DNA of 64,000 nt from Gemmatimonas aurantiaca T-27 (GCF_000010305.1 NC_012489.1:3169646-3233645), one strand, 5' to 3'; counted from the first letter of the stretch, positions 7,618 to 31,767 are shown. Numbers and translations: made by a program. The notes: generated by a model not told the origin, from the letters alone.

Positions 7618-7711
7618 GCAGCGAGTCGAGGACAGTGTGCGAAGGAGTGCGCCGCCAGCAATGCGTATCTGGCAGTTGAGCGGCGTCTCCACTTCGTGGA
7701 GATTGTTTAAG

Positions 7712-7963
7712 ATGCCACGCTATCGCGCTCACGTGGAGATCAACGGCCTCCTCTCGGTACACGCCGTGCGGGCCGTTTGGACCGCCCTGACGGCCGTGCC
7801 GGGGATTCTCACCGCCGAGGTGTCCATGACCGGGGCGGTCCTGGACCTGGAGAGGCCGATCGATCGGGAGGCCTTGGCCACGGCATTGGCGGCCGCCGGG
7901 GTGGAGCTCCGAAGCGTGCGGCAGGAACGCGGTACGTTGCCGCTCATGCCGGATGGCTCCTAG
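7712..7963 (+). CDS. Small HMA-fold-like protein lacking the CxxC motif
   Basis: This 83-residue protein starts at ATG 7712 with GGAG 10 nt upstream. The sequence YRAHVEINGLLSVHAVRAVWTAL, then VPGILTAEVSMTGAVLDLE, then EALATALAAAGVEL follows the beta-alpha-beta-beta-alpha-beta order of heavy-metal-associated domains. The metal-binding MxCxxC loop is replaced by GLLSVHAV, so it is unlikely to bind copper in the usual way. Homologous small proteins are often seen near metal transporters, and mgtE follows 83 nt downstream. The fold assignment is a pattern match; the function is unknown. Confidence 0.6.
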   Translation: MPRYRAHVEINGLLSVHAVRAVWTALTAVPGILTAEVSMTGAVLDLERPIDREALATALAAAGVELRSVRQERGTLPLMPDGS

Positions 7964-8045
7964 CGGCACATATGCCGGGCGGGACTCGCTTTGCGCCCCG
8001 CATGGGCGGTACTAACTTGCCCGCCAGACCGCCGCCCCTTCGCCG

Positions 8046-9458
8046 ATGACGCCACGCGCCAACGAAGACCGGCCGCTTGCGGCGCTGATCGCTCCGGACC
8101 TGCTCGAACTTCTCGAAGAGCACCCGGAAAGCATCGGACCGCAAACGGAGGAAATGCATCCGGCCGACCTCGCCGACGTAGCCGAGGCACTGCCGGAGGA
8201 TCAGGTGCGCGCGTTCCTCGCGGCGCTCCCGAGAGAGCGTGCGGCCGAGGTCATGGAGTACCTCAACGAGGACCTGCGTACACAGGTCCTCGAGGCACTG
8301 TCAGCGCAGGAAGCGGCCGAGATCGTCGCCGAGATGACCCCCGACGAGCGCGCCGATGCGCTCGAGGAGCTCGACGAGGAGACGGCAGACGAGATCCTGC
8401 AGGAACTCGAGCCGGAAGACAAAGCCGCCACCGAGCGCCTGCTCCAGTACGACCCCTATACCGCCGGTGGTCTGATGACCACCGAATTTGTGTCGGTGGA
8501 GGAGACGCTGACGGTGGAGGAATCGCTGCGCGCCGTCCGGGCCATGGCCCGGGCAGGTCGCCGCGAAGCGATGTACACCATCTACACCACCGATCTGAAC
8601 GGCCGTTTGCGCGGTGTGCTCTCGTTGCGTGAACTGCTGGCGGCACCAGAAGGCTCACGCATCAGCGAACACGCGTGGACCGATGTGGTGAGTGTGGCCC
8701 CCGACACCGCGCAGGAAGCCGTGTCGCAGCTCACGTCGAACTACGACCTCGTGGCCGTGCCCGTGGTCGACCTGGACCATCGTCTGCTGGGCGTGGTCAC
8801 CGTCGACGACGTCATCGATGTCATTCAGGAAGAGCAGACCGAGGACGCACAGAAGTTTGGCGGCATGGAAGCGCTCGAAGAGCCCTACATGCAGATCAGC
8901 CTCTGGCAGAACGTGCGCAAGCGCGCCGGCTGGCTGTCCGTGCTTGCCATCAGCGAGATGTTCACAGCCTCGGCGATGGCGCACTACCAGACCGATATCG
9001 ACCGCGCCACGATGCTCGCGCAGTTCGTGCCGCTCATCATCAGCTCGGGTGGCAACTCCGGCTCGCAGGCCACGTCACTGATCATCCGCGCCATGGCGCT
9101 GGGTGAAGTGCATCTGCGCGACTGGTGGCGCATTGTGCTGCGTGAGTTGCCGGCCGGTCTGGCGCTGGGTGTCATTCTGGGACTGCTCGCGGTGGGACGC
9201 ATTCTCACGTGGCAGGAGCTGGGGTTGTACGACTACGGAGCACACCACCTGCTGATCGCGCTGACTGTGGGCGTGTCGCTGGTGGGCATCGTGGCGTTCG
9301 GATCACTCACCGGATCGATGCTGCCATTCATCCTGCGACGCCTCGGCTTTGACCCGGCCAGTGCCTCGGCCCCCTTCGTCGCCACGCTGGTGGATGTCGC
9401 AGGTATCAGCATCTACTTCAGCGTTGCCTACATGGTGCTGAGCGGCACGTTGCTGTGA
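8046..9458 (+). CDS. mgtE: Magnesium transporter MgtE
   Basis: The 470-residue product has the full MgtE architecture. There is a cytoplasmic N domain of alternating acidic helices (LPREERAAEVMEYL-like repeats, residues ~20-130), two CBS domains (~135-255, e.g. YDPYTAGGLMTTEFVSVEETLTV), and a C-terminal membrane domain of about five helices. That domain contains the conserved pore region SSGGNSGSQATSLIIRAMALGE. MgtE is a dimeric, Mg2+-gated Mg2+ channel of the inner membrane. No ribosome site is obvious upstream, and no M-box riboswitch was recognised in the 82-nt gap. The stop overlaps the next start as GTGA. Confidence 0.95.
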   Translation: MTPRANEDRPLAALIAPDLLELLEEHPESIGPQTEEMHPADLADVAEALPEDQVRAFLAALPRERAAEVMEYLNEDLRTQVLEALSAQEAAEIVAEMTPDERADALEELDEETADEILQELEPEDKAATERLLQYDPYTAGGLMTTEFVSVEETLTVEESLRAVRAMARAGRREAMYTIYTTDLNGRLRGVLSLRELLAAPEGSRISEHAWTDVVSVAPDTAQEAVSQLTSNYDLVAVPVVDLDHRLLGVVTVDDVIDVIQEEQTEDAQKFGGMEALEEPYMQISLWQNVRKRAGWLSVLAISEMFTASAMAHYQTDIDRATMLAQFVPLIISSGGNSGSQATSLIIRAMALGEVHLRDWWRIVLRELPAGLALGVILGLLAVGRILTWQELGLYDYGAHHLLIALTVGVSLVGIVAFGSLTGSMLPFILRRLGFDPASASAPFVATLVDVAGISIYFSVAYMVLSGTLL

Positions 9459-10459
9459 GTGGGGTGGCCGAGCGGGTCGACGTGCCGGAAGCGCGTGGGG
9501 GACACGACCGTGAGGCGCACCAACGTGAGGCACATGACCGTGCGTCGCGACTGAAGGGCACGCTCGCGGTGATCGTGAGCGCCTGCTGCTTCGGTTCGAT
9601 TTCTCCGCTCACGGTCATCGCCACCGGACAGGGCATGGCGTTGGAGAGCGTGCAAACGTGGCGCTATCTGACCACGGCGACGCTGCTGGTCCTGTGGGGC
9701 CTGATACGGCGTGATACGCCAGCACCCGCGTCGACCGACGTCTGGCAGTCCTCGTCGGCAATGGTGCCGTGGTATGCCCCACGCATCCTGTTTCAGGCGG
9801 GCGTCGGACAGGCCTCGGTGGCCACGTTGGCCTTGCTGGCGTTGCGGTGGCTGCCAGCGGCCACGGCCTCGTTCCTCTTCTACACGTATCCAGCGTGGGT
9901 GGCCGTTTTTGCGGCCGTGCGCGGTACCGATCATCTCGATCGCACGCGGGTGATCGCCCTGGTGCTCTCGTTGCTGGGCCTGGGCGCCATGGTCGGAGCA
10001 CCCAGCGCCGAGTCGCTGGCTCCGATGGGGGTGATGGTCATTCTGGCCGCAGCGATCGTTTACGCGCTGTACATCCCGCTGCTGGCGAGACTGCAAACCG
10101 GCCGTGATCCGCTCGACGTGGCACGGGCGATCGCCGTCGGTGGATCGGTGTGTTTTCTCACGTGGTCGCTATCGAGCGGCGCGTTCCTGTCGATGCCGAC
10201 GCCGGTGGGGCTCTTCGCCAGTGTGACCCAGGGCGTCATCTCAGCGGGAGCATTCCTGGGATTTTTGCTGGGGCTGCGTCTGCTCGGCTCGGTGCGCACG
10301 GCGATCACGTCGACGGTGGAGCCGTTTTGGACCACACTGCTGGGTATTACCCTGCTTGGTCAGGGGGTGGGCATCGGCACGGTCGTGGGCGGCATCGCGA
10401 TCATGGGGGCCGTGCTATTGTTGCAGCGTCCACCGGCCCTGCCCCGCGTTCCAGAGTAG
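9455..10459 (+). CDS. EamA-type (DMT superfamily) transporter
   Basis: The 334-residue protein begins with a short hydrophilic leader and then about ten hydrophobic helices arranged as two EamA repeats. The second repeat contains SVRTAITSTVEPFWTTLLGITLLGQG, the typical region before the last two helices. DMT transporters export metabolites or amino acids across the inner membrane; the substrate is not predictable here. The GTG at 9455 overlaps the mgtE stop (GTGA), suggesting translational coupling. Confidence 0.85.
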   Translation: MSGVAERVDVPEARGGHDREAHQREAHDRASRLKGTLAVIVSACCFGSISPLTVIATGQGMALESVQTWRYLTTATLLVLWGLIRRDTPAPASTDVWQSSSAMVPWYAPRILFQAGVGQASVATLALLALRWLPAATASFLFYTYPAWVAVFAAVRGTDHLDRTRVIALVLSLLGLGAMVGAPSAESLAPMGVMVILAAAIVYALYIPLLARLQTGRDPLDVARAIAVGGSVCFLTWSLSSGAFLSMPTPVGLFASVTQGVISAGAFLGFLLGLRLLGSVRTAITSTVEPFWTTLLGITLLGQGVGIGTVVGGIAIMGAVLLLQRPPALPRVPE

Positions 10460-10527
10460 CATCGTCAATCGTCCAGTAGGACAGCCTCATTACGAGGCAT
10501 CAGGTATTTCTCCGAGTCATCGATTCC

Positions 10528-11538
10528 ATGGCCAAGATCCTCGTGACCGGCGCGGCCGGCTTCATCGGCTACAACACCAGCGAGCGCCTGCTGGCGCGCG
10601 GCGATGCAGTCGTCGGCCTCGACAACGTCAACGACTACTACGATCCGACGCTGAAGGAGGCCCGCCTGGCCCGCCTGGCGCGTCACCCCGGCTTCCGTCT
10701 GGCGCGCCTGGAACTGGGTGATCGCGAGGGCGTGGAACGCCTCTTCCGTGAGGAGCGCTTCGACCGGGTGATTCACCTCGCGGCCCAGGCCGGCGTGCGG
10801 TACTCGATCACCAATCCGCACACCTACATCGACAGCAACCTCGTCGGGTTTCTGCACATTCTGGAAGGATGCCGCCATCACGGCGTGCAGCACCTCACGT
10901 ATGCCTCGTCGTCGAGTGTGTACGGCGCCAACACGGCCATGCCGTTTTCGGTGCACCAGAACATCGATCATCCGGTGTCGCTGTACGCCGCCACGAAGAA
11001 GGCCAATGAACTGATGGCGCACACGTACAGCCATTTGTACGGATTGCCCACCACCGGCCTGCGCTTTTTCACGGTGTACGGACCGTGGGGTCGCCCGGAC
11101 ATGGCCATGTTCCTGTTCACGAAGGCCATTCTGGAAGGCAAGCCCATCGACGTGTTCAACCACGGCAAGATGCAGCGGGACTTCACCTACATCGACGATA
11201 TCGTCGAAGGGGTGGTGCGCACGAGCGATCATGTCGCGGCCCCGAATCCGGACTGGAATTCCGACCGCCCCGATCCAGCCACCAGCAAGGCCCCGTACCG
11301 AATTTACAATATCGGTAACAACAACCCGGTCGAATTGATGCATCTGATCGCGACGTTGGAGCAGGCGCTGGGGCGGACGGCAGAGAAGAACATGCTGCCG
11401 ATTCAACCAGGTGACGTGCCCGCGACGTATGCCGATGTGGAAGCACTCGTGCAAGACGTGGGTTTCGCGCCCCGCACCTCCATCGAGACCGGTGTAGCGA
11501 ATTTCGTGGCCTGGTACCGCGACTACTACCGTGTCTGA
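10528..11538 (+). CDS. UDP-glucuronate 4-epimerase (SDR family)
   Basis: This 336-residue extended short-chain dehydrogenase converts UDP-glucuronate to UDP-galacturonate. It has the NAD motif [11 protein letters not shown], a family-typical [17 protein letters not shown] segment, the catalytic SSSSVYG block and YAATKKANE (Tyr/Lys pair). The substrate-loop signature [19 protein letters not shown] and [18 protein letters not shown] are characteristic of GlcA 4-epimerases. It lies 24 nt upstream of UDP-glucose dehydrogenase, which makes its substrate, so the pair feeds uronic acids into surface polysaccharide. Confidence 0.92.
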
Positions 11539-11562
11539 GGCGGATATGACACGCGGGGTGGC

Positions 11563-13062
11563 ATGCGGATCGCGATGGTGGGGAGTGGCTATGTAGGTCT
11601 CGTGTCCGGGGCCTGCTTTGCAGAGTTCGGCCCCAGTGTCACTTGTGTGGACGTGTCGGAGGCGCGCATCGAATGCCTCCGACGCGGCGAAATGCCGATT
11701 TACGAGCCCGGGCTCGATGAGCTGGTGGGCAAAGGCCTGCGCTCCGGTCGTTTGACCTTCACCACCGATCTGGCCACGGCGGTCGCGGCCGCCGATGCCG
11801 TGTTCATTGCGGTGGGCACACCATCACGTCGCGGCGACGGGCACGCCGATCTCCGCTATGTGGAAGCCGCCGCCGCGGACATCGCGCGGCACCTGACGGG
11901 CTACACGGTGGTGATCACCAAGAGCACCGTCCCGGTAGGCACCGGTCGACGCGTGGCGGAGATCATTCGCACCACCAATCCCGATGCCGATTTTGATGTG
12001 GTGTCGAATCCGGAGTTCCTGCGCGAAGGCTCAGCCATCGGCGACTTCATGCGCCCCGATCGTGTGGTGATCGGAGCCGAATCGCCGCGCGCGGCGGCGA
12101 TGATGCGGGACGTGTACCGCCCGCTCTACCTGCTCGACACCCCTATGGTGGTGACCACACTCGAGACGGCGGAACTCACGAAGTACGCCGCCAACGCGTT
12201 CCTCGCCACCAAGATCACCTTCATCAACGAGATGGCCGACCTGTGCGAGAAGGTGGGCGCCAATGTGCAGGATGTGGCACGTGCCATGGGCCTCGATGGA
12301 CGCATTGGTCGCACTTTCCTGCACGCCGGCCCGGGCTTCGGTGGATCGTGTTTCCCGAAGGATACGGTGGCCCTGGTGCGCACGGCACAAGAATACGGCA
12401 CACCGGCGCGCCTCGTGGAAACCGTCGTGCAAGTGAACGACACGCGCAAAGGTGCCATGGCTTCACGGGTGATTCACGCATGCGGCGGATCCGTGCGCGG
12501 CAAGACCATCGGCATCCTGGGCGTGTCCTTCAAGCCCAACACCGATGACATGCGGGCCGCGCCGAGCCTGTCGATCATTCCCGCGCTGCAGGATGCGGGC
12601 GCCACGATTCGCGCCTACGATCCGGCCGCGATGAACGAAGCCGCTCCGTTGCTGCCCGACGTGCTGTGGTGCCAGCACGCGTACGAGGTAGCCACCGACT
12701 GCGACGCCGTAGTGCTGATCACCGAGTGGAACGAGTTTCGCGCACTCGACCTCGACCAGCTCGGCAGCGTCATGCGCTCACGCGTGCTGGTGGACCTGCG
12801 CAATGTGTATCGTCCGCAGGAGGCCGTGGCGCACGGGTTCTCCTACACGGGCATCGGTCGCGGGCACCATGCGACACCGATTGCCACGGTGCAACCGATC
12901 GATCGGTCGCTGCCGTTACCAGTAGAGACCGAAACGACGAGTGCCGTAGGGACCGACCACCAGCGCCGGACCGGGCAGACGCACAGCATGCAACAAGGCC
13001 TTGGTACGCACCCAGGCCGGATGATTGCCCGGCAGTCGCGAAGCGTCCACATCGAGGCCTAG
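11563..13062 (+). CDS. ugd: UDP-glucose 6-dehydrogenase with overlong C-terminus
   Basis: The enzyme oxidises UDP-glucose to UDP-glucuronate with two NAD+. Family motifs are present: MVGSGYVGLVSGACFAEFG, SNPEFLREGSAI, the central LTKYAANAFLATKITFINE, and the active-site GPGFGGSCFPKDT (Cys near residue 263). The C-terminal NAD-like domain is intact (GVSFKPNTDDMRAAPSL and LITEWNEF). A GGGGTGG site precedes the ATG. Usual members end near residue 435-440 (here VAHGFSYTGIGR). This frame continues about 60 more residues of unconserved sequence to TAG at 13060, running 147 nt antisense into the convergent gene 12916-13422. Confidence 0.93.
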   Translation: MRIAMVGSGYVGLVSGACFAEFGPSVTCVDVSEARIECLRRGEMPIYEPGLDELVGKGLRSGRLTFTTDLATAVAAADAVFIAVGTPSRRGDGHADLRYVEAAAADIARHLTGYTVVITKSTVPVGTGRRVAEIIRTTNPDADFDVVSNPEFLREGSAIGDFMRPDRVVIGAESPRAAAMMRDVYRPLYLLDTPMVVTTLETAELTKYAANAFLATKITFINEMADLCEKVGANVQDVARAMGLDGRIGRTFLHAGPGFGGSCFPKDTVALVRTAQEYGTPARLVETVVQVNDTRKGAMASRVIHACGGSVRGKTIGILGVSFKPNTDDMRAAPSLSIIPALQDAGATIRAYDPAAMNEAAPLLPDVLWCQHAYEVATDCDAVVLITEWNEFRALDLDQLGSVMRSRVLVDLRNVYRPQEAVAHGFSYTGIGRGHHATPIATVQPIDRSLPLPVETETTSAVGTDHQRRTGQTHSMQQGLGTHPGRMIARQSRSVHIEA

Positions 13063-13422
13063 CACATACTCGGCCGCGTTGCTGCTGGCAAATTCCCGTC
13101 GCCCAACCGATAGCCGTACGGCGGCGGGCCATGCCGGTGCGACGCGGTCAGGCAACAGGTCATGCACGTTTGCCGACAACCACAGCATGGAACTGTTGGT
13201 GTTCATGCGCATGCCACGCGGTCCGCGGCGCATGAGCATCCCCCGCGGCGCCACGGAGAATGACGGTGTCACGGCTCGCTTGCTCCACGACGGAACACTG
13301 GCCCGCCCATCGGGCGCGGCCGTGGCCACCGTGGAGTCCTGAGCGCGCAGCCCGACGGGCAACGCCAGGCACAGCACGGCTCCGAGCACCAAATGGCGAG
13401 CGAGTGAAGACAAATAGGACAT
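12916..13422 (-). CDS. Small exported protein, C-terminal DUF2279/YfiM-like
   Basis: The 168-residue product has a signal peptide (MSYLSSLARHLVLGAVLCLALPVG, cleavage near LRAQ). The rest, especially NTNSSMLWLSANVHDLLP, AVRLSVGRREF, LGLDVDASRLPGNHP and the end PALVVGPYGTRRFGLYW, resembles the C-terminal half of DUF2279/YfiM-like envelope proteins. The N-terminal half of that family is not visible, so it may be a short or degraded form. This assignment is tentative. Its last 147 nt overlap the 3' end of ugd on the other strand. Confidence 0.55.
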   Translation of the reverse strand: MSYLSSLARHLVLGAVLCLALPVGLRAQDSTVATAAPDGRASVPSWSKRAVTPSFSVAPRGMLMRRGPRGMRMNTNSSMLWLSANVHDLLPDRVAPAWPAAVRLSVGRREFASSNAAEYVLGLDVDASRLPGNHPAWVRTKALLHAVRLPGPALVVGPYGTRRFGLYW

Positions 13423-13691
13423 GACAGCGCGGCTGGGGTTGACCTCTGCCAGTGCAATGGCCGTGCCCGCACCATTTCCACTCGCCACCACACCACGGGG
13501 GAAAAGGCTTCCGTGCGGGTGTGTGGTTCGTGACAGATCAGGCGCCTGCTACGGGGACGTTCCGCGCAACGTATGCACCGGACGTGACAGCACCGTGAAC
13601 GCCCCCGTGCACAGTGCCTCCAAGTGTCCTTCGCGCGTGTCCCCATTCAGAGACACTCGTTGCACCCGCGCGACACTCCGCAGCGCGCGCC

Positions 13692-14417
13692 CTACTGCGA
13701 CTTACCGCGCCGTCCCCGAGCGAAGGCCACAAAGCCTACGAGAAACACCGTCGCAAATCCGAACCACTGGAACGCGTACGACTGATGTGGTCCCTCGCCG
13801 AGAGACGGCGGAGGGATGCGGGCCGGACGCGTGACATCCCGCACGAGCGTGTCACCAAGTGCCAGCAAGAGGAACGGCGCCAAGGGTCGACCCACAATTC
13901 GTGTCAGGGAATCGTGGTCCAGCAATCGCACCGCGCGTTCGTTCGATGGCAGCGTCGCGCGTCCAGGACGCACGGGTGGATAGGACAACACCAGGGCGTC
14001 GAGTGTCAGTGTATCCGCTTCCCGTGCTTTGACGTGATCGATGGTGCGAGCATCCGGCGAGTACACGTAGCCTCGTACCAACAGAATGGCGGTATCACCC
14101 CAACTACCGTCGAGTGGTGTGAGGGGTGTGAGCAAGTGCACGCCCGGCGATCCTCCCTGCGATCGGGTGGCGTGCACGGCTTCATTCGCATAATCGGCGA
14201 CGGCATGGACATGCACCCGTCGCCAGTGTGTGACCACCGTGTCCTGCCCCTGCAGTGCGGCCAGGGAGAGTGGTGCCATCGCTCCCCGATCACCCACCAC
14301 ACGATTCTGCACACGTCGTTCCGTCAGACGATCGAGCTGCCAGATACCAAGCCGCACACACACGGCTGCCGCGGCCACGGCCACCACGCCGAACAACCAC
14401 ACCTTCCCACGTGTCAT
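13692..14417 (-). CDS. SURF1 family cytochrome oxidase assembly protein
   Basis: This 241-residue membrane protein has the SURF1 layout: one N-terminal helix ending in RLGIWQLDRLTERR, a periplasmic domain including PLTPLDGSWGDTAILLVRGYV, and a C-terminal helix preceded by PPSLGEGPHQSYAFQWFGFATVFLVGF. SURF1 helps insert heme a into cytochrome c oxidase subunit I. Its ATG overlaps the glgB stop as ATGA, so it is co-transcribed with glgB, which is an unusual partner. No cytochrome oxidase genes are in the window. Confidence 0.87.
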   Translation of the reverse strand: MTRGKVWLFGVVAVAAAAVCVRLGIWQLDRLTERRVQNRVVGDRGAMAPLSLAALQGQDTVVTHWRRVHVHAVADYANEAVHATRSQGGSPGVHLLTPLTPLDGSWGDTAILLVRGYVYSPDARTIDHVKAREADTLTLDALVLSYPPVRPGRATLPSNERAVRLLDHDSLTRIVGRPLAPFLLLALGDTLVRDVTRPARIPPPSLGEGPHQSYAFQWFGFATVFLVGFVAFARGRRGKSQ

Positions 14418-16987
14418 TCCGATGGATCCTTCTTCGGCGCCCGGGCAGTGCGGGGCTTGGCGACTTTCGGTTTGACAGTCTTCGGCGTGTTCACAGCGGG
14501 CTGGGTTTTCGGGGTCTCGACCTTCGGCGTCGCCGACTTCGGCGATTCAGTCTTCACGACCTTTGGTGTTGCCACCTTCGGCTTTTCAGGCGCCGACTTT
14601 GTGATGGTGGGCCTGGCCACCTTCGGCGTGGTGGCTTTGCGTTTCGTTGTCTTCGGCTTTTTGACTTCCAGCGTCGCCACGTCGGACTTCGTCGTCTTGG
14701 CCTTTTCGGTCTTGGGCTTGGCAGTCTTTACCTTGACCGGTTTCGACGTTGCCCCTTCCGACGACGGCGCCGTGAGCTGTGTTGCTCCGTCACCCTCAGG
14801 CAGCAGCACCAGCATGGCCAGCGGAGGCAGCGACAACACGATCGACGCATCGAAGCCGTGATATGGCATGGCGTCGGTGGTGACTTCTTCGAACACCGGA
14901 TAGCCGCTCCCACCGAACGCGCTCGCATCCGAATTGAGGAGCAAGCGATACCGACCAGCACGGGGCACTCCCAGCCGGTACTGATCGCGCGGCACGGGCG
15001 TCAGGTTGAGCACCACGAGTGCATGCGCGTCTCCGTCGAAACGCGCGTACGAGAGTACCGACTGCTCACGATCTGCCACGTCGATCCACCGGAACCCGGC
15101 GGGTTCGTGGTCCGAACGCCAGAAGCAGGCATGCGCACGGTAGGCCTGCTGCAACGCCTGCAGGAAGTCGGAGAGACCGCGACGCCGTGGATCCTCGAGC
15201 AGTTCCCACTCGAGACTCACGTCGTGATTCCACTCCCGATGCGGCGCGAGCTCCGTGCCCATGAAAAACAGCGACTTGCCGGGCCGAGTGATCGAATAGC
15301 CGAGCAGTGTGCGCAGGTTGGCAAATTTCTGCCACATGTCACCTGGCATCTTCTCCAGCAACGACCGCTTGAGATGCACCACCTCGTCGTGCGAGAGGGG
15401 GTTCATGAAGCGTTCGCTGTACTCGTACCAGATGGCGAACGTGAGCTTTTCGTGGGCGCCCTTCCGGAAGAAGGGGTCGACACGGAAGTAGTCCAGCGTG
15501 TCGTGCATCCAGCCCATGTTCCACTTGAACGTGAAACCGAGGCCGCCGTCGCGAATCGGTGCCGTGACCTTGGGCCACGACGTGCTCTCTTCGGCGATGG
15601 TGACCACGCCGGGATGCAGCGACTGCATCGCCAGGTTGAGCTGCTTGAGGAACGCAACGGCTTCGAGGTTCTCGCGTCCACCGAAACGATTGCGCAGCCA
15701 CTGCCCCGCTTCGCGCCCGTAGTCGAGATACAGCATCGAGGCCACAGCGTCGACACGCAGGCCATCAAGGTGAAACTCTTCGATCCAGTACAGCGCATTG
15801 GCCACGAGAAAATTGCGGACCTCGTGACGCGCGTAGTTGAAGATATGGGTGCCCCACTCGGGATGATCGCCGAGGCGCGGGTCTTCATGCTCGTAGCAGG
15901 CGGTGCCGTCGAATCGACGCAGTGCCCAGTCGTCCTTGGGGAAGTGTGCAGGCACCCAGTCGAGCAGTACACCGATCCCGGCCTCGTGGAGGGTATCCAC
16001 GAGGAATCGCAAATCGTCTGGTGATCCGTGACGGGAGTTCGGGGCGAAGTAGCCACCCACCTGATAGCCCCACGACCCACCGAACGGATGATCCTGCACC
16101 GGCAACAGTTCCACGTGTGTGAAACCGAGCGTGCTCACATGCGACGCCAGTCGCGGCGCAATCTCGCGATACGACAACAGGCGATTGTCATCGCCACGCA
16201 GCCACGAGCCGAGGTGCACTTCGTACACCAGCATCGGCTCCCTGCGCAGATCGGAGTCGGCACGTTCCGCCAACCATCGCCCATCACGCCAGGGATATCG
16301 ACTGCGGGCCTGCACAATCGATGCATGCCCAGGGCCCTGTTCGAGTTTCGCCGCAAACGGATCGGTCTTCACACGCAGCGCGCCCGTGCGCGTGCGGATC
16401 TCGAACTTGTACAGCGTCTCGGCACCGATGCCCGGAATGAACAACTCGAACACCCCGCTCGCACCCAGTCGCCGCATGGTGTGCGCTCGTCCGTCCCAGC
16501 GATTGAAATCCCCGGAGACCGAGACACGCGTGGCATTGGGTGCCCACACGGTGAACGCTGTACCATCCACCCCATCGATGGTGCGCACATGGGCACCCAT
16601 CTTTTCCCACAACCGCAGATGCCGCCCCTCGTTGAAGAGGTGCAGATCCACATCGCCAATCGTGGGCAGAAAACGATACGGGTCATCGAACGTGCGCACC
16701 TGCCCTTCATCGTCGGTCATCTCGAACCGATAGCGCAGCGGCAGTTTTCGGTCTGGTACGAATACGCTGTACAACCCGGATACTTCGCGCTGCATGGGCA
16801 GGTGCTGTTCGCCGATCACCACATCGATGCGACGAGCACGCGGCTGCCATGCCCGGATCACGACGCCCGAGACACCGTCGATCGTGGCGGAATGGGCACC
16901 AAGCAGATCATGTGGACTGACCGATTCGCCGCGAACCAGGCGAGTAGCCGCCTCGTCAGGGGCCGGCGGTAGAGAGAGCGCTGGCAT
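14414..16987 (-). CDS. glgB: 1,4-alpha-glucan branching enzyme with basic C-terminal tail
   Basis: GlgB makes alpha-1,6 branches in glycogen. The product has N-terminal CBM48-type modules (LLGAHSATIDGVSGVVIRAWQP, then AFTVWAPNATRVSVSGDFNRW) and a GH13 catalytic barrel. The barrel shows HLDGLRVDAVASMLYLDYGR (nucleophile Asp), TIAEESTSWP (acid/base Glu) and PLSHDEVVH. The enzyme normally ends about where SIVLSLPPLAMLVLLPEG occurs. Here a further ~100 residues rich in Lys, Thr, Pro and Ala (TPKV, KPK repeats; about 14417-14740) follow. ATG 16987 is preferred over an in-frame ATG at 17029 because TATACT lies 6 nt before it. The predicted length is 857 residues. Confidence 0.93.
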   Translation of the reverse strand: MPALSLPPAPDEAATRLVRGESVSPHDLLGAHSATIDGVSGVVIRAWQPRARRIDVVIGEQHLPMQREVSGLYSVFVPDRKLPLRYRFEMTDDEGQVRTFDDPYRFLPTIGDVDLHLFNEGRHLRLWEKMGAHVRTIDGVDGTAFTVWAPNATRVSVSGDFNRWDGRAHTMRRLGASGVFELFIPGIGAETLYKFEIRTRTGALRVKTDPFAAKLEQGPGHASIVQARSRYPWRDGRWLAERADSDLRREPMLVYEVHLGSWLRGDDNRLLSYREIAPRLASHVSTLGFTHVELLPVQDHPFGGSWGYQVGGYFAPNSRHGSPDDLRFLVDTLHEAGIGVLLDWVPAHFPKDDWALRRFDGTACYEHEDPRLGDHPEWGTHIFNYARHEVRNFLVANALYWIEEFHLDGLRVDAVASMLYLDYGREAGQWLRNRFGGRENLEAVAFLKQLNLAMQSLHPGVVTIAEESTSWPKVTAPIRDGGLGFTFKWNMGWMHDTLDYFRVDPFFRKGAHEKLTFAIWYEYSERFMNPLSHDEVVHLKRSLLEKMPGDMWQKFANLRTLLGYSITRPGKSLFFMGTELAPHREWNHDVSLEWELLEDPRRRGLSDFLQALQQAYRAHACFWRSDHEPAGFRWIDVADREQSVLSYARFDGDAHALVVLNLTPVPRDQYRLGVPRAGRYRLLLNSDASAFGGSGYPVFEEVTTDAMPYHGFDASIVLSLPPLAMLVLLPEGDGATQLTAPSSEGATSKPVKVKTAKPKTEKAKTTKSDVATLEVKKPKTTKRKATTPKVARPTITKSAPEKPKVATPKVVKTESPKSATPKVETPKTQPAVNTPKTVKPKVAKPRTARAPKKDPSE

Positions 16988-16999
16988 ACCTGAAGTATA
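16988..16999 (-). promoter_or_regulatory. glgB -10 element, leaderless arrangement
   Basis: On the minus strand TATACT (16999-16994) is followed by 6 nt and then ATG 16987. There is no Shine-Dalgarno sequence. The spacing places transcription start at or next to the start codon. No clear -35 hexamer was found. Confidence 0.5.
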
Positions 17000-17212
17000 G
17001 GGCCAGGACGGGAGCGCGGCGGGTTCCATCCGATGCCGAGGCCCCCATGCGTTGCCGCAAGGGACGCCACCCCAGCCTGCGACAGATGCCGTTGGTCACA
17101 TCCGGGCGCCGACTGCCCCAGCCGTGAATCCGCCTCCGGTATTGCTCCGTCTAAGAGGATACAGGCGGATCGACGGCCTGTTTTCCCCACCCGGATATTG
17201 AGGAGTCGTCCC

Positions 17213-17719
17213 ATGCTGGCACTCGTGCTCTCGACGTTCGCGACCCTTCAGGTCGTTACCCCAGCTCCTGCGCGTCTTGCTCCGACCCCCGTCGCGGTGG
17301 TCGCAGCAGTCGCAATGCCTGCCGCTGACACACCGTCCGACGAATACCTCGCGCGTGCTCGCAAGGCGTTCGATCAGGGCGATTTCCAGGCAGCCCGCCG
17401 CGACTACGTGATTGCCGCCGCGCTCGAGCGTGATGCCGGTCGCGTGCCGGTGGTCGCTTCGTTTGCCCTGTCTCGTGTGCTGTTCGCGCAGTCGAACAAC
17501 AAGGAGGCCGCTCAGGTGCTGACGGAGCTCGCGCGTGAGGCCTCAGCCAAGGGTGACGACAACACGGAAGCTCGTGCCCTTGCCGACGCCATCTGGCTCA
17601 ATCGCGAATCTCACCAGCTCGCGCAGGTGCGCGCCGATGCGGCACGCCTTCGTGACCTGTTGAAGGGCAAGACGCTCTCAGCCGAAACTCGCCGGATCAT
17701 CAGCGAAACGACGTCCTGA
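17213..17719 (+). CDS. Exported TPR-like protein
   Basis: The 168-residue protein starts at ATG 17213 with a strong GAGGAG site 7 nt upstream. A hydrophobic N-terminus (MLALVLSTFATLQVV) suggests export, though the segment is long and Ala/Pro-rich. Residues ~43-150 consist of helical pairs with TPR-like spacing (YLARARKAFDQGDFQAARRDYVIAAALE; LFAQSNNKEAAQVLTELAREA). It is probably a small scaffold or assembly protein; no partner can be named. Confidence 0.65.
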   Translation: MLALVLSTFATLQVVTPAPARLAPTPVAVVAAVAMPAADTPSDEYLARARKAFDQGDFQAARRDYVIAAALERDAGRVPVVASFALSRVLFAQSNNKEAAQVLTELAREASAKGDDNTEARALADAIWLNRESHQLAQVRADAARLRDLLKGKTLSAETRRIISETTS

Positions 17720-25398: not shown

Positions 25399-28300
25399 GT
25401 GCTCACCCTCCGCGCCGCCGCCCAGCTCCTCTCCCGCGCCGACTCCCACTCGGCCCTGCGGGCCCTCGCCCCCGTCCTGGGATTTGCGCCTGACCCATTG
25501 ACGGTTCCGACCGCCATCCGACGGGATCTGGGGCTGCAAGACCTGGTGCAACGCGCCGACCTCTTTGAAGGCCCGGGAGCGCTGCGACTGCTCACCGCGC
25601 ACCTCACCCCTGCCGACACACTCGACGGGGCTCACGACCTGCGGGAACGGACCAAACGGGTCGCGGAGGCACTCGTTCGGCATGCGCCCACCCGCCAATG
25701 GCTGCTCTGCACCATCGACGATCAGGAGTGCATGTTGTGCCTGGCAGCGGTCAGCGACACCAACGGCGGGCCGCGCGTGGCAGCACTCCGCGTGGACCGA
25801 CGCCGAGTCCTCGATTCCGACGCCGACACCTTCCGGGCACTGGCCGCTGCGGCGCACGATCCCTCTCCGATTCGGCATGCCCGCTTCACCGATATCCTGC
25901 GGCGGGATGCGCTGTCGCTGCGATTCTATCGCGCGCTCGAACAGGCCGTCGACACGCTGGCTCGCTCGCTGGCCCCGTCAGGCCGCACCCGCAGTCGCGC
26001 CGCCACCGCGCTGACCCCCGCCCAGCGACGGGAGCTGGCCCTGCTGTGCCTCTCACGCTGTCTGTTCCTGGGTTTCCTCGAAGCCAAAGGCTGGCTCGAC
26101 GATCGTCGCGACTTTCTCCTCCACCATACCCTCCGTGTGCTCGAAAGCGGGGGCGCGTTGCACGAGCGCCTTCTCCGTCCGCTGTTCTTCGGCACGCTCA
26201 ACACACCGCGCCGCGCACGCGCCGTCACAGCACGTCTGTTCGGTCGTGTCCCGTTTCTCAATGGCGGACTCTTCTCACCCACGGCACTCGAGCGGCGCGC
26301 GCGCACACTGCACTTCAGCGACGATGCGCTCACGGCCCTCATCACCGGCGTGCTCGATCGCTACCGCTTCACCGCACACGAAGATTCGACGTCATGGTCC
26401 GAAGCCGCGGTCGATCCCGAAATGCTCGGTCGCGCCTTCGAAAGTCTCATGGCAGCCGAAGACCGGCGTCGATCCGGGGCCTTTTATACGCCGCCGCATC
26501 TGGTCGACGCCGCCATCTCCGAGGCACTCACGGCGCTGCTCCCCTCCATCCCGGCGGCTGTGCTCGAAGAGTCCTCCAACGCCCCCCTCTCCGCAGAAGC
26601 GGCGTTCACCATCACCCATCGATTGGCCTGCCTGCGCGTCCTCGATCCGGCCTGCGGCTCCGGTGCGTTCCTGGTGCGTGCCCTCGAACGATTCGACACA
26701 CTACTCAAACGCGCCGGCGACCAGCGTCCAGCCCATGAACGGCGTCGCGCCCTGCTCACACTTGGTATCTTCGGCGTCGATCGCGATCCGATGGCGGTCT
26801 GGCTATGCGAATTGCGACTGTGGCTGGCAGTGGTCATCGAATGCCACGATCCGGATATCGACCGCATCGCGCCGCTCCCCAACCTCGACCACCACATCAG
26901 AATCGGAGACTCGCTGGCTGGAGGCACCTTCCGGTTTGCACCTCCCAGCGGTCGCACGCTCTCCACCCTGCGTGCTCGCTACAGCCGGGCCAGCGGCGCC
27001 CGCAAAATCACCATCGCATCAGCACTCGACCAGGAAGAACGCCGACGCAGTGTCGCGGAACTCTCCTCCCGCCTCGACGCCATCGGCCGTGAACGACGGC
27101 AACTGCTGACCAGCCTGCGCGGACGCGACCTCTTCGGTCAACGCACACGCGCCACACGTGCCGATCGGGCCAGACTCACCACCCTGCGCACCTCCACCCG
27201 CGAACTGTCCACGCACCGCAAACGTCTCCAACTCGGAGGCGCGCTCCCCTTCCGCTTCGGCGCCATGTTCGCTGATGTCGGAGCAGCACATGGGTTTGAT
27301 CTCGTTGTCGGCAACCCACCGTGGGTGCGCCCACACGCCATGCCCGAACACGAACGACAGTGGCTGCGCCAGGAGTTCCGCGCCATGCGACACGCGGGAT
27401 GGCGCGCCGGGGCTACCCGCGCTGGCGCCGGTGCCGGTTTTGCCGCCCAAGCCGATCTCGCGGTCGCCTTCGTGGAACGCAGTATGCAGTTGCTGGCCCC
27501 GCGCGGTACCCTGGCGCTGCTCGTACCGGCCAAACTGTGGCGCACACTCGCCGGAGGCGGCATTCGTCGAGCGCTGCAACAGGAGATGCATCTGCACGCA
27601 CTGCACGACTGGAGCGACGCCCCGGCACAGTTCGATGCGGCCACCTACCCATCACTCGTCGTGGCGACTCGGCGTGCGAGCCCCGCCGCTGCCGATACCT
27701 CCCGGTTCGCCGAATCGTCGCCCCTCCTTCTCAAAGATTCACCGGTGCGCGTCACCATCGTGCGGGAAACCCCGCTCCACTTCCAGGTGGAGCCGCACGC
27801 CCTCTCGCTCGATGGTGATCCTGACGCACCGTGGCTGCTGCTCCCCCACGCCCCACGCCTGGCTTTCCAACGGCTGCGCGATGCGGGTCCGCCGCTCGCG
27901 CACTCCCCACTCGGCCGCCCCCTCCTCGGCGTCAAGTGTGGATGCAATGCCGCCTTCCTCGTGCACGCGCACGAACACGATGATCACTCGGCCACCGTCA
28001 CCGCACTGACCACATCGGCCCCACGGCAAGGTGTCATCGAACGCCACCTGCTCCGCCCCGCGCTCCGCGGTGAAGCCGTCCGCGATCCCTTCGCACCCAA
28101 GGTCGATGATCGCGAGGAGCCGCCGCACGCGAATGACTTGCGCATCATCTGGACCCATGGACTCGATGGCGCCGCGCTACCCACACTCCCCACCGCGACC
28201 CAACGCTGGCTCGCACACTGGCGTCCCCGACTCCACGCCCGGCGCGACGCGCGACACCACACGCCATGGTGGTCACTCTTCCGCACCGACTCTGCACGCA

Positions 28301-28716
28301 ATGATGCACCACGCGTTGTGTGGGCAGATATCGGCAGGTCGCTCCGCACGCAGGTGCTGCCGGCTGGCGATCCCACCGTACCACTCAACAGCTGCTATGT
28401 CGTGCGTGTGCCCACCGATTCCGATGCCTTCGCCCTGCACGCCCTGCTGCAGTCCACCGTTTCGGCCGCCTGGCTCGATCCGCTCGCCGAACCCGCACGC
28501 GGCGGCTTCCGACGTTTCCTCGGCTGGACCATCGCATCACTGCCGTTGCCCGCCGACTGGCCCGCCGCCCGCCGCATACTGGCCCCCATCGGGGAGCGAC
28601 TACATCGCGGCATATCACCTCCAACACGCGACACGCTCGATGCGGCAGTAACAGACACCTACGGGCTCACCTTCGATCAGATCCAGCCGCTGATCGATTG
28701 GTACCGCCGTGGCTGA
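25399..28716 (+). CDS. Eco57I-type N6-adenine DNA methyltransferase (candidate defence)
   Basis: The 1105-residue protein starts at GTG 25399; no ribosome site is obvious. Residues ~1-200 are unassigned, and 210-235 hold the LALLCLSRCLFLGFLEAKGWL motif common to large Eco57I-like methylases. Around 359 is GAFYTPPHLVDAAI. SAM motif I is VLDPACGSGAFLVRALE (~415), followed by FGVDRDPMAVWLCELRLWLA. Catalytic motif IV is DLVVGNPPWVR (~639), NPPW replacing NPPY, and LLVPAKLWRTLAGGGIRRAL follows. The last ~330 residues look like a target-recognition region. No PD-(D/E)XK, HNH or PLD nuclease motif was found. It overlaps the helicase gene by 8 nt. It is probably the modification component of a defence module. 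Confidence 0.85.
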   Translation: MLTLRAAAQLLSRADSHSALRALAPVLGFAPDPLTVPTAIRRDLGLQDLVQRADLFEGPGALRLLTAHLTPADTLDGAHDLRERTKRVAEALVRHAPTRQWLLCTIDDQECMLCLAAVSDTNGGPRVAALRVDRRRVLDSDADTFRALAAAAHDPSPIRHARFTDILRRDALSLRFYRALEQAVDTLARSLAPSGRTRSRAATALTPAQRRELALLCLSRCLFLGFLEAKGWLDDRRDFLLHHTLRVLESGGALHERLLRPLFFGTLNTPRRARAVTARLFGRVPFLNGGLFSPTALERRARTLHFSDDALTALITGVLDRYRFTAHEDSTSWSEAAVDPEMLGRAFESLMAAEDRRRSGAFYTPPHLVDAAISEALTALLPSIPAAVLEESSNAPLSAEAAFTITHRLACLRVLDPACGSGAFLVRALERFDTLLKRAGDQRPAHERRRALLTLGIFGVDRDPMAVWLCELRLWLAVVIECHDPDIDRIAPLPNLDHHIRIGDSLAGGTFRFAPPSGRTLSTLRARYSRASGARKITIASALDQEERRRSVAELSSRLDAIGRERRQLLTSLRGRDLFGQRTRATRADRARLTTLRTSTRELSTHRKRLQLGGALPFRFGAMFADVGAAHGFDLVVGNPPWVRPHAMPEHERQWLRQEFRAMRHAGWRAGATRAGAGAGFAAQADLAVAFVERSMQLLAPRGTLALLVPAKLWRTLAGGGIRRALQQEMHLHALHDWSDAPAQFDAATYPSLVVATRRASPAAADTSRFAESSPLLLKDSPVRVTIVRETPLHFQVEPHALSLDGDPDAPWLLLPHAPRLAFQRLRDAGPPLAHSPLGRPLLGVKCGCNAAFLVHAHEHDDHSATVTALTTSAPRQGVIERHLLRPALRGEAVRDPFAPKVDDREEPPHANDLRIIWTHGLDGAALPTLPTATQRWLAHWRPRLHARRDARHHTPWWSLFRTDSARNDAPRVVWADIGRSLRTQVLPAGDPTVPLNSCYVVRVPTDSDAFALHALLQSTVSAAWLDPLAEPARGGFRRFLGWTIASLPLPADWPAARRILAPIGERLHRGISPPTRDTLDAAVTDTYGLTFDQIQPLIDWYRRG

Positions 28717-31111
28717 GCCACACGGCAGAACGCCCGTGCTGCCGAGCAGCATGCCACTTACCGAAGTGCAACACCGCATCGCGCAGGCGCTGCGCACGAC
28801 ACCCCCACACCACCACGAGTCACTCACCCTCGGACTCGTGCAATTGTTGCCCACGCAGCTCGAAACGGCAGTCCATGTGCGCAGCATCATCGCCCGATAC
28901 GGCGGTGCCCTGCTGGCCGACAACGTAGGATCGGGAAAGACCTTTGTCGCCCTCGCCGTCGCGCGCCACTACCAGTTGGTTCACATCGTGGCGCCCGCCA
29001 CCTTGCTCTCCATGTGGTGGGATGCGGTCCAACGCACATCGACCACGACACCAGCGCCGGAACAGACCCGGCCACCGAAGCGACCACAGGTTCAGGTGCA
29101 TTCACTGCACCAGTTCTCACGTCGACGCCACGCAAGACTCGCGTCCAACACCAGCACACTCGTTGTGATCGACGAGGCGCACCAACTCAGACACGCCAAC
29201 ACCGCCCGCTACCGCGCCCTCGCTCATGCCGTGACCGGCGCACACACACTCCTGCTTTCGGCCACACCGCTTCACAACACCGCGTCGGAACTGCAGACAC
29301 TGTGCGCCCTGTTCACACGCCAGGTGCAACCGGAGATGATCGTCAGGCAATCCACACCGTCCGTGCCGGAATCAGGGTCCACGCAAGGCCGAGTCCACCG
29401 TCCCACCATCGTCGAACATCGCATTCGTCCGATTCCGCAGAACGAAGAGACCCTTACTAAGATCCTGACACTGCCCGCGCCACTGCCCACGCGAGATGGC
29501 GCCGCCGCAGGCGCGTTCATTCGACTCGGACTCTTACGCGCCTGGTGCTCCAGTGATGCGGCCCTGGCCGGCGCACTGCGTCGTCGCCAACTCCGTGGCC
29601 AAGCTCTACGCGATGCCTTGCATGCCGGGAGACACCCGACCGCAGAGGAACTGCGGTCGTGGGTCATCGGTGAATCCGATGGGCAACTGGCCTTCCCGGA
29701 ACTCCTTGTGACTCATGCGGTGGAGGCGATGCCACTCCTGCTCACACTGGAGCACCACCTCCAGGCGATCACCGCACTCACACACCACCATGGGCTGACC
29801 AGCACAGGTGACACAGTTCGCGCACAACGGCTGCGCGAAATCATGCATCGTCACGCCGACGTACCGATCATCGCGTTCTCCCAATTCGAACGCACCGTGA
29901 TTGCGATGTATCGAGCGCTCGCGGACATCGCGGGCGTGGGCATGCTCACCAGCAGCAATGGTCGCATCGCGAGCGGACCCATTCAACGGGAGGAACTGCT
30001 GGGGTTCTTTGCGCCCACCGCACAAGGGCGACCGCCCCCACCGCCGCACCAGGCGGTGCGATTGCTGATCACGACGGACTTGTTGGCAGAAGGTGTGAAT
30101 CTCCAGGATGCCGGCGTCGTCGTGCATCTCGATTTGCCGTGGACACACGCGTTGCTCACCCAACGCGTCGGCCGTTGTGCACGCCTCGGATCGCCCCACC
30201 AAGCCGTGCACGTCTACCGACTCCGGAGCTCCGCACATGCGACATCCGCCCTGCGTGCCGAAGCGCGCATCGCACAAAAGGCGAGCCTGGCCAGACGACA
30301 CGTAGCGGGAACACGCGCCCAACCCAGCCCGCCGGAGATCTCAGCACGTTTGCGGGAGGCGATCGAGACGTGGGATCGTGCGACCACAGCTTCCTCGCAG
30401 GAATGTCCATCCGTCGCCTTTTCGGTGTGCTGGCGTCGTGATGCGCGTCGTACCACGCAGGCGCTCGCCTTGCTGCACCCTCCCGATGCATCACACCCCC
30501 GCCTTCTCGTAGTCCGACCGGGCGGTAGCCCGCCAGTGTTGTCCGGTTCGCACACGTTGCTTGCAACGATCCGCGCCATATCCGGGTCCGAGGAGGGCGC
30601 AGTGTCCCGCGCCGCCGTCGCGCCCGAGTATGAGCGTGTCCATCGCTGCCTCACCCGATGGGTCGACCGCCAAACCGCGGCAGCCTCGTTGGGCGTCACG
30701 CCGCATCGCTTGTGGGATATCGACAGGAACCAGGCCACGCCGACCCAGACACGGGCGCTCCGGCTGCTGCACCGCGCCCTCGCGCAACTCACCGTCACCG
30801 AACGCACGAGGGAAGCGCCACACATTGTCAGGATCCAATCAACCATCGAGACACTCCGAGGAGCTGGCATGGAGGCCGCCCTCGCTGCGTGGTGCGCACG
30901 AGCGCCCACGCTTTCGCCCAGCACAACGGCCGAAGTGCGCCAATGGCTGGCAGGCTGGGAAAGGGACCCGCTCCTCCGGCAGGCGGCACCCACGACATCG
31001 CGGCGGGATAACGACTCGGATCACCACCCGGATCACACCGGGTCCGTGGCATCCGACCGGTATCGTCTCGTGGCCATGATCCTGATACTCCCGATTAATC
31101 TTCGGACATGA
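28709..31111 (+). CDS. SF2 (SNF2-like) helicase partner of the methylase
   Basis: The 800-residue ATPase starts at GTG 28709 inside the methylase gene; ATG 28751 is an alternative. Motif I is GALLADNVGSGKTFVAL (71-78), motif Ia HIVAPATLLSMWWDAV, motif II VVIDEAHQL (DEAH 155-158) and motif III LLLSATPLHN (181-190). The second RecA lobe has LLITTDLLAEGVNLQDAGVVVHLDLPW and motif VI LLTQRVGRCARLGSPHQAVHVYRL. This is the arrangement of SNF2-like translocases such as those in DISARM-type loci. The ~250 C-terminal residues are helical and unassigned. No nuclease domain was seen. Its stop overlaps the HAD gene start by ATGA. Confidence 0.85.
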   Translation: MAEPHGRTPVLPSSMPLTEVQHRIAQALRTTPPHHHESLTLGLVQLLPTQLETAVHVRSIIARYGGALLADNVGSGKTFVALAVARHYQLVHIVAPATLLSMWWDAVQRTSTTTPAPEQTRPPKRPQVQVHSLHQFSRRRHARLASNTSTLVVIDEAHQLRHANTARYRALAHAVTGAHTLLLSATPLHNTASELQTLCALFTRQVQPEMIVRQSTPSVPESGSTQGRVHRPTIVEHRIRPIPQNEETLTKILTLPAPLPTRDGAAAGAFIRLGLLRAWCSSDAALAGALRRRQLRGQALRDALHAGRHPTAEELRSWVIGESDGQLAFPELLVTHAVEAMPLLLTLEHHLQAITALTHHHGLTSTGDTVRAQRLREIMHRHADVPIIAFSQFERTVIAMYRALADIAGVGMLTSSNGRIASGPIQREELLGFFAPTAQGRPPPPPHQAVRLLITTDLLAEGVNLQDAGVVVHLDLPWTHALLTQRVGRCARLGSPHQAVHVYRLRSSAHATSALRAEARIAQKASLARRHVAGTRAQPSPPEISARLREAIETWDRATTASSQECPSVAFSVCWRRDARRTTQALALLHPPDASHPRLLVVRPGGSPPVLSGSHTLLATIRAISGSEEGAVSRAAVAPEYERVHRCLTRWVDRQTAAASLGVTPHRLWDIDRNQATPTQTRALRLLHRALAQLTVTERTREAPHIVRIQSTIETLRGAGMEAALAAWCARAPTLSPSTTAEVRQWLAGWERDPLLRQAAPTTSRRDNDSDHHPDHTGSVASDRYRLVAMILILPINLRT

Positions 31112-31767
31112 CCCAAGGCCGGACACCGCACGCCCTGCTCTTCGATCTTGATGGCACGCTGATCGACTCCATCCAGTTGCTGCTCGAAAGCATGCAACAC
31201 GCATTCGTCGGACACCGGCGATGCCCGACCACCGCCGAATGGGTGGCTGGCATCGGTACCCCGCTGCGCGCCCAGCTCGCGGAGTGGTGCGACACTGCTG
31301 ACGAAGCCGAGCAGTTGGTCACGCGGTATCGGGAGTATCAGGACCGGCACCTCGAGAGCCTCACCACGCCCTACCCGGCCGTGCTGGAGATGCTGGCCTG
31401 GGCCCGGGAACGCGGGCACCCCACCGCCATCGTCACCAGCAAGGGGCGGATCATGACCAGCCGGTCGCTGCAGCATGTCGGGTTGGCAGACGCCTTCGAC
31501 ACCGTGGTGACCTTCGAAGAGACCGAGCGCCACAAGCCACTGGCCGACCCCGTGCTGCTGGCCCTCGACCGGCTGGGCGCCACACCCGACCGCGCTCTGT
31601 TTGTCGGCGATTCGCCACACGACATGTTTTCCGGCCTGGCCGCCGGCGTGAAGACCGCCGCCGCGCTCTGGGGACCGTTTTCGCGGGAGGAGCTGGCCAA
31701 GGCGTCCCCGACCTTCTGGATGACCGGCTTCCACGAGCTCCCGGACATCGTGGCCCGCCTCGACTGA
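31108..31767 (+). CDS. HAD-family phosphatase (phosphoglycolate phosphatase-like)
   Basis: The 219-residue protein is a subfamily IA HAD hydrolase. It has motif I LLFDLDGTLIDS (nucleophile Asp), a helical cap, motif II AIVTSKG (Thr/Ser), motif III lysine in RHKPLADPVLLALDRLG, and motif IV ALFVGDSPHDMFSGLAAG. This layout is shared by phosphoglycolate phosphatase and PpaX-type pyrophosphatases; the substrate is uncertain. Its ATG sits within the helicase stop (ATGA), so translation is probably coupled, but a housekeeping role is equally likely. Confidence 0.85.
   Translation: MTQGRTPHALLFDLDGTLIDSIQLLLESMQHAFVGHRRCPTTAEWVAGIGTPLRAQLAEWCDTADEAEQLVTRYREYQDRHLESLTTPYPAVLEMLAWARERGHPTAIVTSKGRIMTSRSLQHVGLADAFDTVVTFEETERHKPLADPVLLALDRLGATPDRALFVGDSPHDMFSGLAAGVKTAAALWGPFSREELAKASPTFWMTGFHELPDIVARLD

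What the first reader, a model, noticed from the sequence alone, without database searches (positions are those of the whole stretch)
25399..31767. Overlapping adenine methylase-helicase-HAD cassette: candidate minimal defence system
Seen: an Eco57I-type N6-adenine methylase (motif I DPACGSGAF, motif IV NPPW) overlaps an SF2/SNF2-like helicase by 8 nt, and the helicase overlaps a HAD phosphatase by 4 nt. Known: DISARM class 1 pairs a SNF2-like helicase (DrmD) with such a methylase (DrmMI) but also needs DrmA, DrmB and DrmC; type ISP enzymes fuse nuclease, helicase and methylase; BREX uses PglX with other genes. Here no nuclease, DrmABC, PglZ, BrxC, integrase or tRNA is present. Inference: a two- or three-gene modification-plus-translocase system, or the remnant of a larger one, sits among housekeeping genes.
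Basis: partly seen in the sequence, partly recalled or inferred. Interest (0 to 1): 0.75.

Follow-up and report, generated by a model that had tools for sequence, protein, structure and literature searches.

The report
Nuclease-less restriction system turned core
A DNA-methylating enzyme and its partner DNA motor, which look like a restriction system that lost its DNA-cutting part, sit side by side in the same chromosomal spot across almost a whole order of bacteria, suggesting they became part of the everyday chromosome machinery rather than remaining an optional phage defence.

Summary
Coordinates, frames, motifs and overlaps are confirmed. The pair is not an island gene pair but a near-core one: methylase in 104/111 and helicase in 103/111 good genomes of the order (HsdR control 32/111), syntenic in three families, each family monophyletic. 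The methylase model is closest to CamA, then PglX and MmeI. Its residues 1-168 lie where MmeI carries its nuclease but have no conserved catalytic residues, and its specificity domain evolves in step with the catalytic core. Homologous methylases in other phyla mostly pair with a helicase carrying an N-terminal HKD (PLD) nuclease. In one Gemmatimonadota family that domain is a separate dead ORF; in this order it is gone. Gemmatirosa kalamazonensis keeps the methylase without the helicase; elimination among its adenine methylases points to ATGCAC as target. The HAD gene is a neighbour, not a part: it persists where the pair is lost. Best reading: a PLD-SNF2/methylase restriction-like system that lost its nuclease and was fixed as a vertically inherited m6A methylase-translocase pair, analogous to B. 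subtilis DnmA-YeeB. Function (epigenetic versus non-nucleolytic defence) is inferred, not shown.

The parts
25399..28716 (+). CamA/MmeI/PglX-like N6-adenine DNA methyltransferase (1105 aa)
   Evidence: AF2 model pLDDT 90; CamA Z 24.8, PglX 22.7, MmeI 22.1
25399..25902 (+). N-terminal alpha/beta domain, residues 1-168: position of the MmeI nuclease domain, no conserved catalytic residues, fastest-evolving part
26644..26670 (+). MTase motif I DPACGSGAF (residues 416-424)
   Evidence: near-invariant in 61 sequences except position 419
27313..27324 (+). MTase motif IV NPPW (residues 639-642)
   Evidence: 60 of 60 relatives
27709..28578 (+). target-recognition region (residues about 771-1060)
   Evidence: diverges in step with the catalytic core; covered by the CamA/MmeI alignment
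28709..28716 (+). 8-nt overlap of MTase and helicase genes
28709..31111 (+). SNF2-family ATPase/translocase (800 aa) without the N-terminal PLD nuclease of its relatives
   Evidence: INO80/ISWI-type motor Z 23.5
28928..28942 (+). Walker A GSGKT (residues 74-78)
   Evidence: 58 of 58 relatives
29171..29182 (+). DEAH box (residues 155-158)
   Evidence: 58 of 58 relatives
30161..30184 (+). motif VI QRVGRCAR (residues 485-492)
   Evidence: 58 of 58 relatives
31108..31767 (+). HAD phosphatase (PpaX/Gph-like): overlapping neighbour, judged not part of the system

Best explanation
The pair descends from a restriction-like system made of an Eco57I-type adenine methylase and a PLD(HKD)-SNF2 helicase. 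In Gemmatimonadota the HKD nuclease decayed (a dead separate ORF in one family) and was lost in the order to which the window belongs, while the methylase and the SNF2 motor were fixed on the chromosome and inherited vertically. The methylase most likely places m6A on one strand of a fixed asymmetric motif (ATGCAC is the best candidate), as CamA, MmeI and DnmA do; the SNF2 motor most likely translocates on duplex DNA and works with the methylase (clearing proteins, scanning for or responding to unmethylated sites). Shown: gene content, motif integrity, synteny, vertical descent, absence of the nuclease domain, conserved specificity domain, purifying selection. Inferred: methylation activity and motif in this species, interaction of the two proteins, and an epigenetic or chromosome-maintenance role as in the DnmA precedent.
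For: Core distribution: MTase in 138/149, helicase in 137/149 related genomes, 64 of 67 genera; in good genomes 104/111 and 103/111 against HsdR 32/111. Adjacent and same order in 59 of 60 fetched loci over five families; neighbours (NUDIX, LD-carboxypeptidase, sigma factor cluster) shared across families. Families f1, f2, f3, f4, f9 each monophyletic in the MTase tree; PLD-bearing versus nuclease-less split has full support in both MTase and helicase trees. In other phyla most full-length partners carry an HKD motif, with PLDc_2 over Pfam's cut-off in the three scanned; no HKD in any Gemmatimonadota locus; the intervening ORF of family f4 matches the PLD domain by profile (98.2%, E 3e-14, decoys negative) but lacks HKD. 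TRD identity tracks core identity (51% at core 50-60%, 32% at 30-40%), unlike in the other-phyla set (38%, 21%). CamA is the closest fold. Gemmatirosa lost the helicase but keeps the MTase and has three m6A motifs over 99% methylated (PMC3974934); its other adenine MTases found are a type I HsdM with HsdS and HsdR and an MT-A70, fitting CCAGN7TCA and RGATCY and leaving ATGCAC. The motif is not avoided. Plasmids and phages hold no homologue covering 80% of the query.
Against: The helicase evolves faster than most housekeeping neighbours (41-51% identity inside the genus against 65-89% for many of them) and its dN/dS is higher than that of the MTase, which could mean relaxed constraint or an arms race. 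Gemmatirosa lost the helicase altogether. A nuclease acting in trans cannot be excluded. The motif assignment is by elimination and from another genus. The f9 intervening ORF did not match the PLD profile. The 60 loci were chosen where both genes were mostly seen on one contig; exceptions to adjacency exist (G042, G045, G061, G062, G116).
Confidence: 0.6

Rival explanations
1. Still an anti-phage system: the MTase marks self DNA and the SNF2 motor recognises unmarked invading DNA and blocks it by translocation or by recruiting a nuclease encoded elsewhere, as in BREX- or DISARM-like exclusion.
For: Homology to restriction-like PLD-SNF2/MTase systems; fast-evolving helicase; no genome seen with a clear helicase orthologue but without MTase, as expected if the motor is harmful without the mark; a V. 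crassostreae DnmA-YeeB homologue is antiphage (cited in PMC9973331).
Against: Near-universal, syntenic, vertical distribution instead of patchiness; no defence system genes in the flanks; specificity domain not diversified; no nuclease found.
Confidence: 0.25
2. The MTase alone is the functional core gene (a CamA/DnmA-like orphan) and the helicase is a passenger in slow decay.
For: Gemmatirosa keeps the MTase without the helicase; the helicase has higher dN/dS and lower identity.
Against: ATPase motifs intact in 58 of 58 helicases, dN/dS 0.18-0.20 in the better resolved pairs, kept in 103/111 good genomes: too conserved for a passenger.
Confidence: 0.15

Closest known systems
PLD(HKD)-SNF2 helicase plus Eco57I-type MTase pairs (PADLOC C3a139 'HKD+Snf2')
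   Same: Homologous MTase and SNF2 helicase, usually adjacent
   Different: PLD nuclease absent here; order-wide core distribution and conserved specificity domain
B. subtilis DnmA-YeeB-YeeC
   Same: MmeI-like MTase without nuclease motif next to a helicase; MTase acts as an orphan regulator from an RM relic (PMC7261158, PMC9973331)
   Different: DnmA sits in a GC-poor, apparently horizontally acquired region with a third gene (YeeC); here a two-gene vertically inherited core pair
CamA of C. difficile
   Same: Closest solved fold (Z 24.8); a DNA adenine MTase acting as an orphan regulator
   Different: CamA (577 residues) lacks the N-terminal region 1-325; no SNF2 partner known to me
BREX-related (DUF499/Hma) systems
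   Same: N6-MTase plus SNF2 helicase; type 2 has an HKD-helicase fusion (PMC12839542)
   Different: No DUF499 ATPase in this genome
DISARM class 1
   Same: SNF2 helicase plus adenine MTase
   Different: DrmD score far below cut-off; no DrmA/B/C next to it
MmeI (type IIL) and type ISP enzymes
   Same: Spacer, MTase and TRD fold over residues 169-1103 (MmeI Z 22.1)
   Different: No nuclease active site found; motor on a separate chain

Membership tests
DISARM class 1 | DrmD helicase at curated cut-off | tested here: not met
   69.4 bits (cut-off 950) and 59.4 bits (cut-off 610)
DISARM class 1 | DrmA, DrmB, DrmC at the locus | tested here: not met
   ten flanking proteins scanned with PADLOC, no Drm hit; not searched genome-wide
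BREX | PglX at curated cut-off | tested here: not met
   49.8 of 400 (BREX-2), 40.7 of 900 (BREX-6), 26.8 of 500 (BREX-1)
BREX | PglZ and BrxC at the locus | tested here: not met
   no PADLOC hit in ten flanking proteins; not searched genome-wide
BREX-related / Hma | DUF499 ATPase | tested here: not met
   PF04465 absent from the window's genome
PLD-SNF2 + MTase system | homologous MTase next to SNF2 helicase | tested here: met
PLD-SNF2 + MTase system | N-terminal HKD (PLD) nuclease on the helicase | tested here: not met
   absent in the window and in L061-L120
MmeI-type IIL enzyme | MTase with spacer and TRD of the MmeI fold | tested here: met
   Z 22.1, rmsd 4.0 over 652 residues; PF20473 28.1 bits against cut-off 27
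MmeI-type IIL enzyme | N-terminal PD-(D/E)XK nuclease | tested here: not met
   no conserved acidic/lysine set; pattern in 0 of 60 relatives; fold of residues 1-168 not searched alone
Core orphan methylase (CamA/DnmA-like) | active m6A methylation without cognate restriction | not testable with these tools
   only indirect: Gemmatirosa methylome and intact motifs
Core orphan methylase (CamA/DnmA-like) | core, vertically inherited gene | tested here: met

The most novel reading that the evidence does not exclude
An order-wide core epigenetic system in which a CamA-like adenine methylase works with a dedicated SNF2-family DNA translocase, a bacterial methylase-remodeller pair born from a restriction system whose nuclease decayed stepwise in living sister families.
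Probability: 0.35. Interest if true: 0.8.

Novelty: new variant of a known kind. Interest (0 to 1): 0.56.

Why it matters
It offers a clear case of domestication: a restriction-like module whose nuclease is intact in other phyla, dead in one sister family and absent in a whole order, where the methylase and motor became near-universal core genes. It makes a concrete prediction (ATGCAC methylated on one strand across the order) that archived long-read data could test, and it raises the question of what an SNF2 motor does for DNA methylation in bacteria without a nuclease.

Tried and rejected
HAD as third component: rejected, since the HAD orthologue stays in genomes without the pair (G066, G085, G099, G115, G119, G126) and is missing in genomes with it (G035, G088, G130, G136, G143, G145). 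Hidden nuclease: no conserved active-site residues in MTase 1-168 or helicase 540-800; the structure searches barely tested these two parts, so no statement about their fold. PDB and Pfam/NCBIfam searches of the intervening ORF of families f4/f9 gave nothing credible; profile comparison resolved f4 only. Motif avoidance: ATGCAC is low against dinucleotide shuffles (39 against 55.8) but not against a maximal-order Markov model, so no sign of restriction. Literature on Gemmatimonas methylomes or defence: only the Gemmatirosa paper was relevant.

Full report
Observation. Pfam calls Eco57I/N6_Mtase, SNF2-rel_dom/Helicase_C and HAD_2. PADLOC and NCBIfam find only distant similarity: type IIG enzymes 124 bits and DrmMI 96 bits for the MTase; DpdE 89 bits of 500 and DrmD 69 of 950 for the helicase. 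Flanks are housekeeping genes without PADLOC defence models except a general 2OG domain. Base composition is not foreign: GC 0.65-0.67 like the surroundings, with a strong C bias on the + strand over the two genes.

Distribution. The window lies in a single 4,636,964-base contig, the size I remember for Gemmatimonas aurantiaca T-27. Of 149 related genomes in one order, 138 have the MTase and 137 the helicase; in good genomes 104 and 103 of 111. The control HsdR is in 32 of 111. Many genomes without the pair are fragmentary or small. In 60 fetched loci from five families the helicase follows the MTase in 59, with overlaps or short gaps in families f1-f3 (one of 1 kb) and 360-850 bases in f4 and f9. 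These loci were picked where both genes were mostly visible, so the fraction is biased upwards; exceptions are Gemmatirosa (no helicase), G042 (about 11.6 kb inserted near the 3' end of the MTase), and G061, G062, G116 (different contigs). The surroundings are shared across families: NUDIX, LD-carboxypeptidase, and the sigma factor-DUF4097 cluster downstream in f1 and f3 but upstream in some f2 genomes. MTase trees make every family monophyletic, f2 with f3 and f4 with f9. The helicase tree agrees on f1, f2, f3, f9 and less on deep branches. No homologue covering 80% of the MTase is on plasmids or phages.

What was lost. A scan of 84,980 species genomes found related MTases in Chloroflexota, cyanobacteria, candidate phyla, archaea, Bacteroidota and others. 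There the neighbour is typically a helicase of 1,020-1,200 aa. In most of these an HKD motif such as LHGKAYL...GSSN lies about residue 95-145, and in the three scanned Pfam PLDc_2 is over its cut-off; PADLOC's best model is 'HKD+Snf2'. In Gemmatimonadota none of the loci has an HKD motif. Family f4 has a separate ORF of about 185-207 aa between the genes that matches the PLD profile at 98.2% probability (E 3e-14; decoys negative) with the active-site residues replaced. Family f9 has a shorter ORF, fused to the helicase in some members, that could not be matched. In f1-f3 nothing is left: the helicase is 660-880 aa. A few Myxococcota, Acidobacteriota and proteobacterial MAGs also carry nuclease-less pairs. 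In both trees PLD-type and nuclease-less sets are separated with full support.

The MTase. The model (pLDDT 90) is closest to CamA (Z 24.8, rmsd 2.8, 516 residues), PglX (22.7), MmeI (22.1, rmsd 4.0, 652 residues over 169-1103), M.BseCI and type ISP enzymes. Residues 1-168 occupy the position of the MmeI nuclease domain; they are the least conserved part (about 20% between most families) and have no conserved acidic/lysine set, and the pattern [DE]x6-22[DEQ]xK occurs in 0 of 60 relatives. The target-recognition region evolves in step with the catalytic core: 51% identity where the core is at 50-60%, against 38% in the other-phyla set (few pairs in the latter). This suggests one recognition sequence across the group.

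Target. In Gemmatirosa kalamazonensis (taken as G045: 5,311,527-base chromosome, four contigs) the MTase gene is intact and is followed directly by the sigma factor gene; the helicase is gone. Its published methylome has RGATCY, ATGCAC and CCAGN7TCA, each over 99% methylated (PMC3974934). Its other adenine MTases found by Pfam are HsdM (with HsdS and HsdR: type I, fits the bipartite motif) and an MT-A70 protein (may fit the palindrome). By elimination ATGCAC, asymmetric like the MmeI and DnmA motifs, belongs to this MTase. This is inference from another genus. The motif is not avoided in these genomes under a maximal-order Markov model.

The helicase. The motor core (residues 32-541) matches INO80, ISWI and other SNF2 remodellers (Z up to 23.5, rmsd 3.3, 378 residues); the C-terminal 250 residues are modelled poorly in part and have no conserved catalytic set. 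Motifs I, II and VI are intact in 58 of 58 relatives. Selection is purifying (dN/dS about 0.18-0.20 in the better resolved pairs, 0.42 in the very closest, against 0.07 and 0.14 for the MTase). It evolves faster than most neighbours.

The HAD gene. It is next to the pair in about 26 of 40 loci, downstream or sometimes upstream, but it stays where the pair is lost and is missing in some genomes with the pair. I treat it as a neighbour.

Comparison. B. subtilis DnmA-YeeB-YeeC is the closest studied case: an MmeI-like MTase without nuclease motif, a helicase and a third gene; it does not restrict phage or plasmid in the conditions tested, and the MTase regulates genes as a relic of an RM system (PMC7261158, PMC9973331). 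BREX-related systems need DUF499 (PMC12839542), absent here. DISARM and BREX fail their tests.

Verdict. The anatomy, descent and nuclease absence are well supported. What the pair does is not shown; I put epigenetic or chromosome-maintenance use ahead of non-nucleolytic defence because of the distribution and the locked specificity domain.

Noticed in passing
L204 (G042) about 5955-17599: About 11.6 kb of lower-GC DNA lies inside the 3' part of the MTase gene, near residue 1030; looks like an inserted element.
   Followed up: partly
L111 (G045): Gemmatirosa lacks the helicase: the sigma factor gene follows the MTase directly.
   Followed up: yes
L101-L109, L121, L122: Small ORF (or N-terminal extension) between MTase and helicase in families f4 and f9; dead PLD domain in f4, unassigned in f9.
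   Followed up: partly
L139, L147, L151, L153: Nuclease-less MTase-helicase pairs also occur in a few Myxococcota, Acidobacteriota and proteobacterial MAGs (or these are binning errors).
   Followed up: partly
L076, L077: The HAD gene lies just upstream of the MTase instead of downstream of the helicase.
   Followed up: no
L088, L094, L095, L100 versus the window: The sigma factor-DUF4097 cluster is upstream of the MTase in some f2 genomes, downstream of the helicase in f1.
   Followed up: no
26001-30000: Strong negative GC skew (-0.17 to -0.18) on the + strand over the two genes.
   Followed up: no
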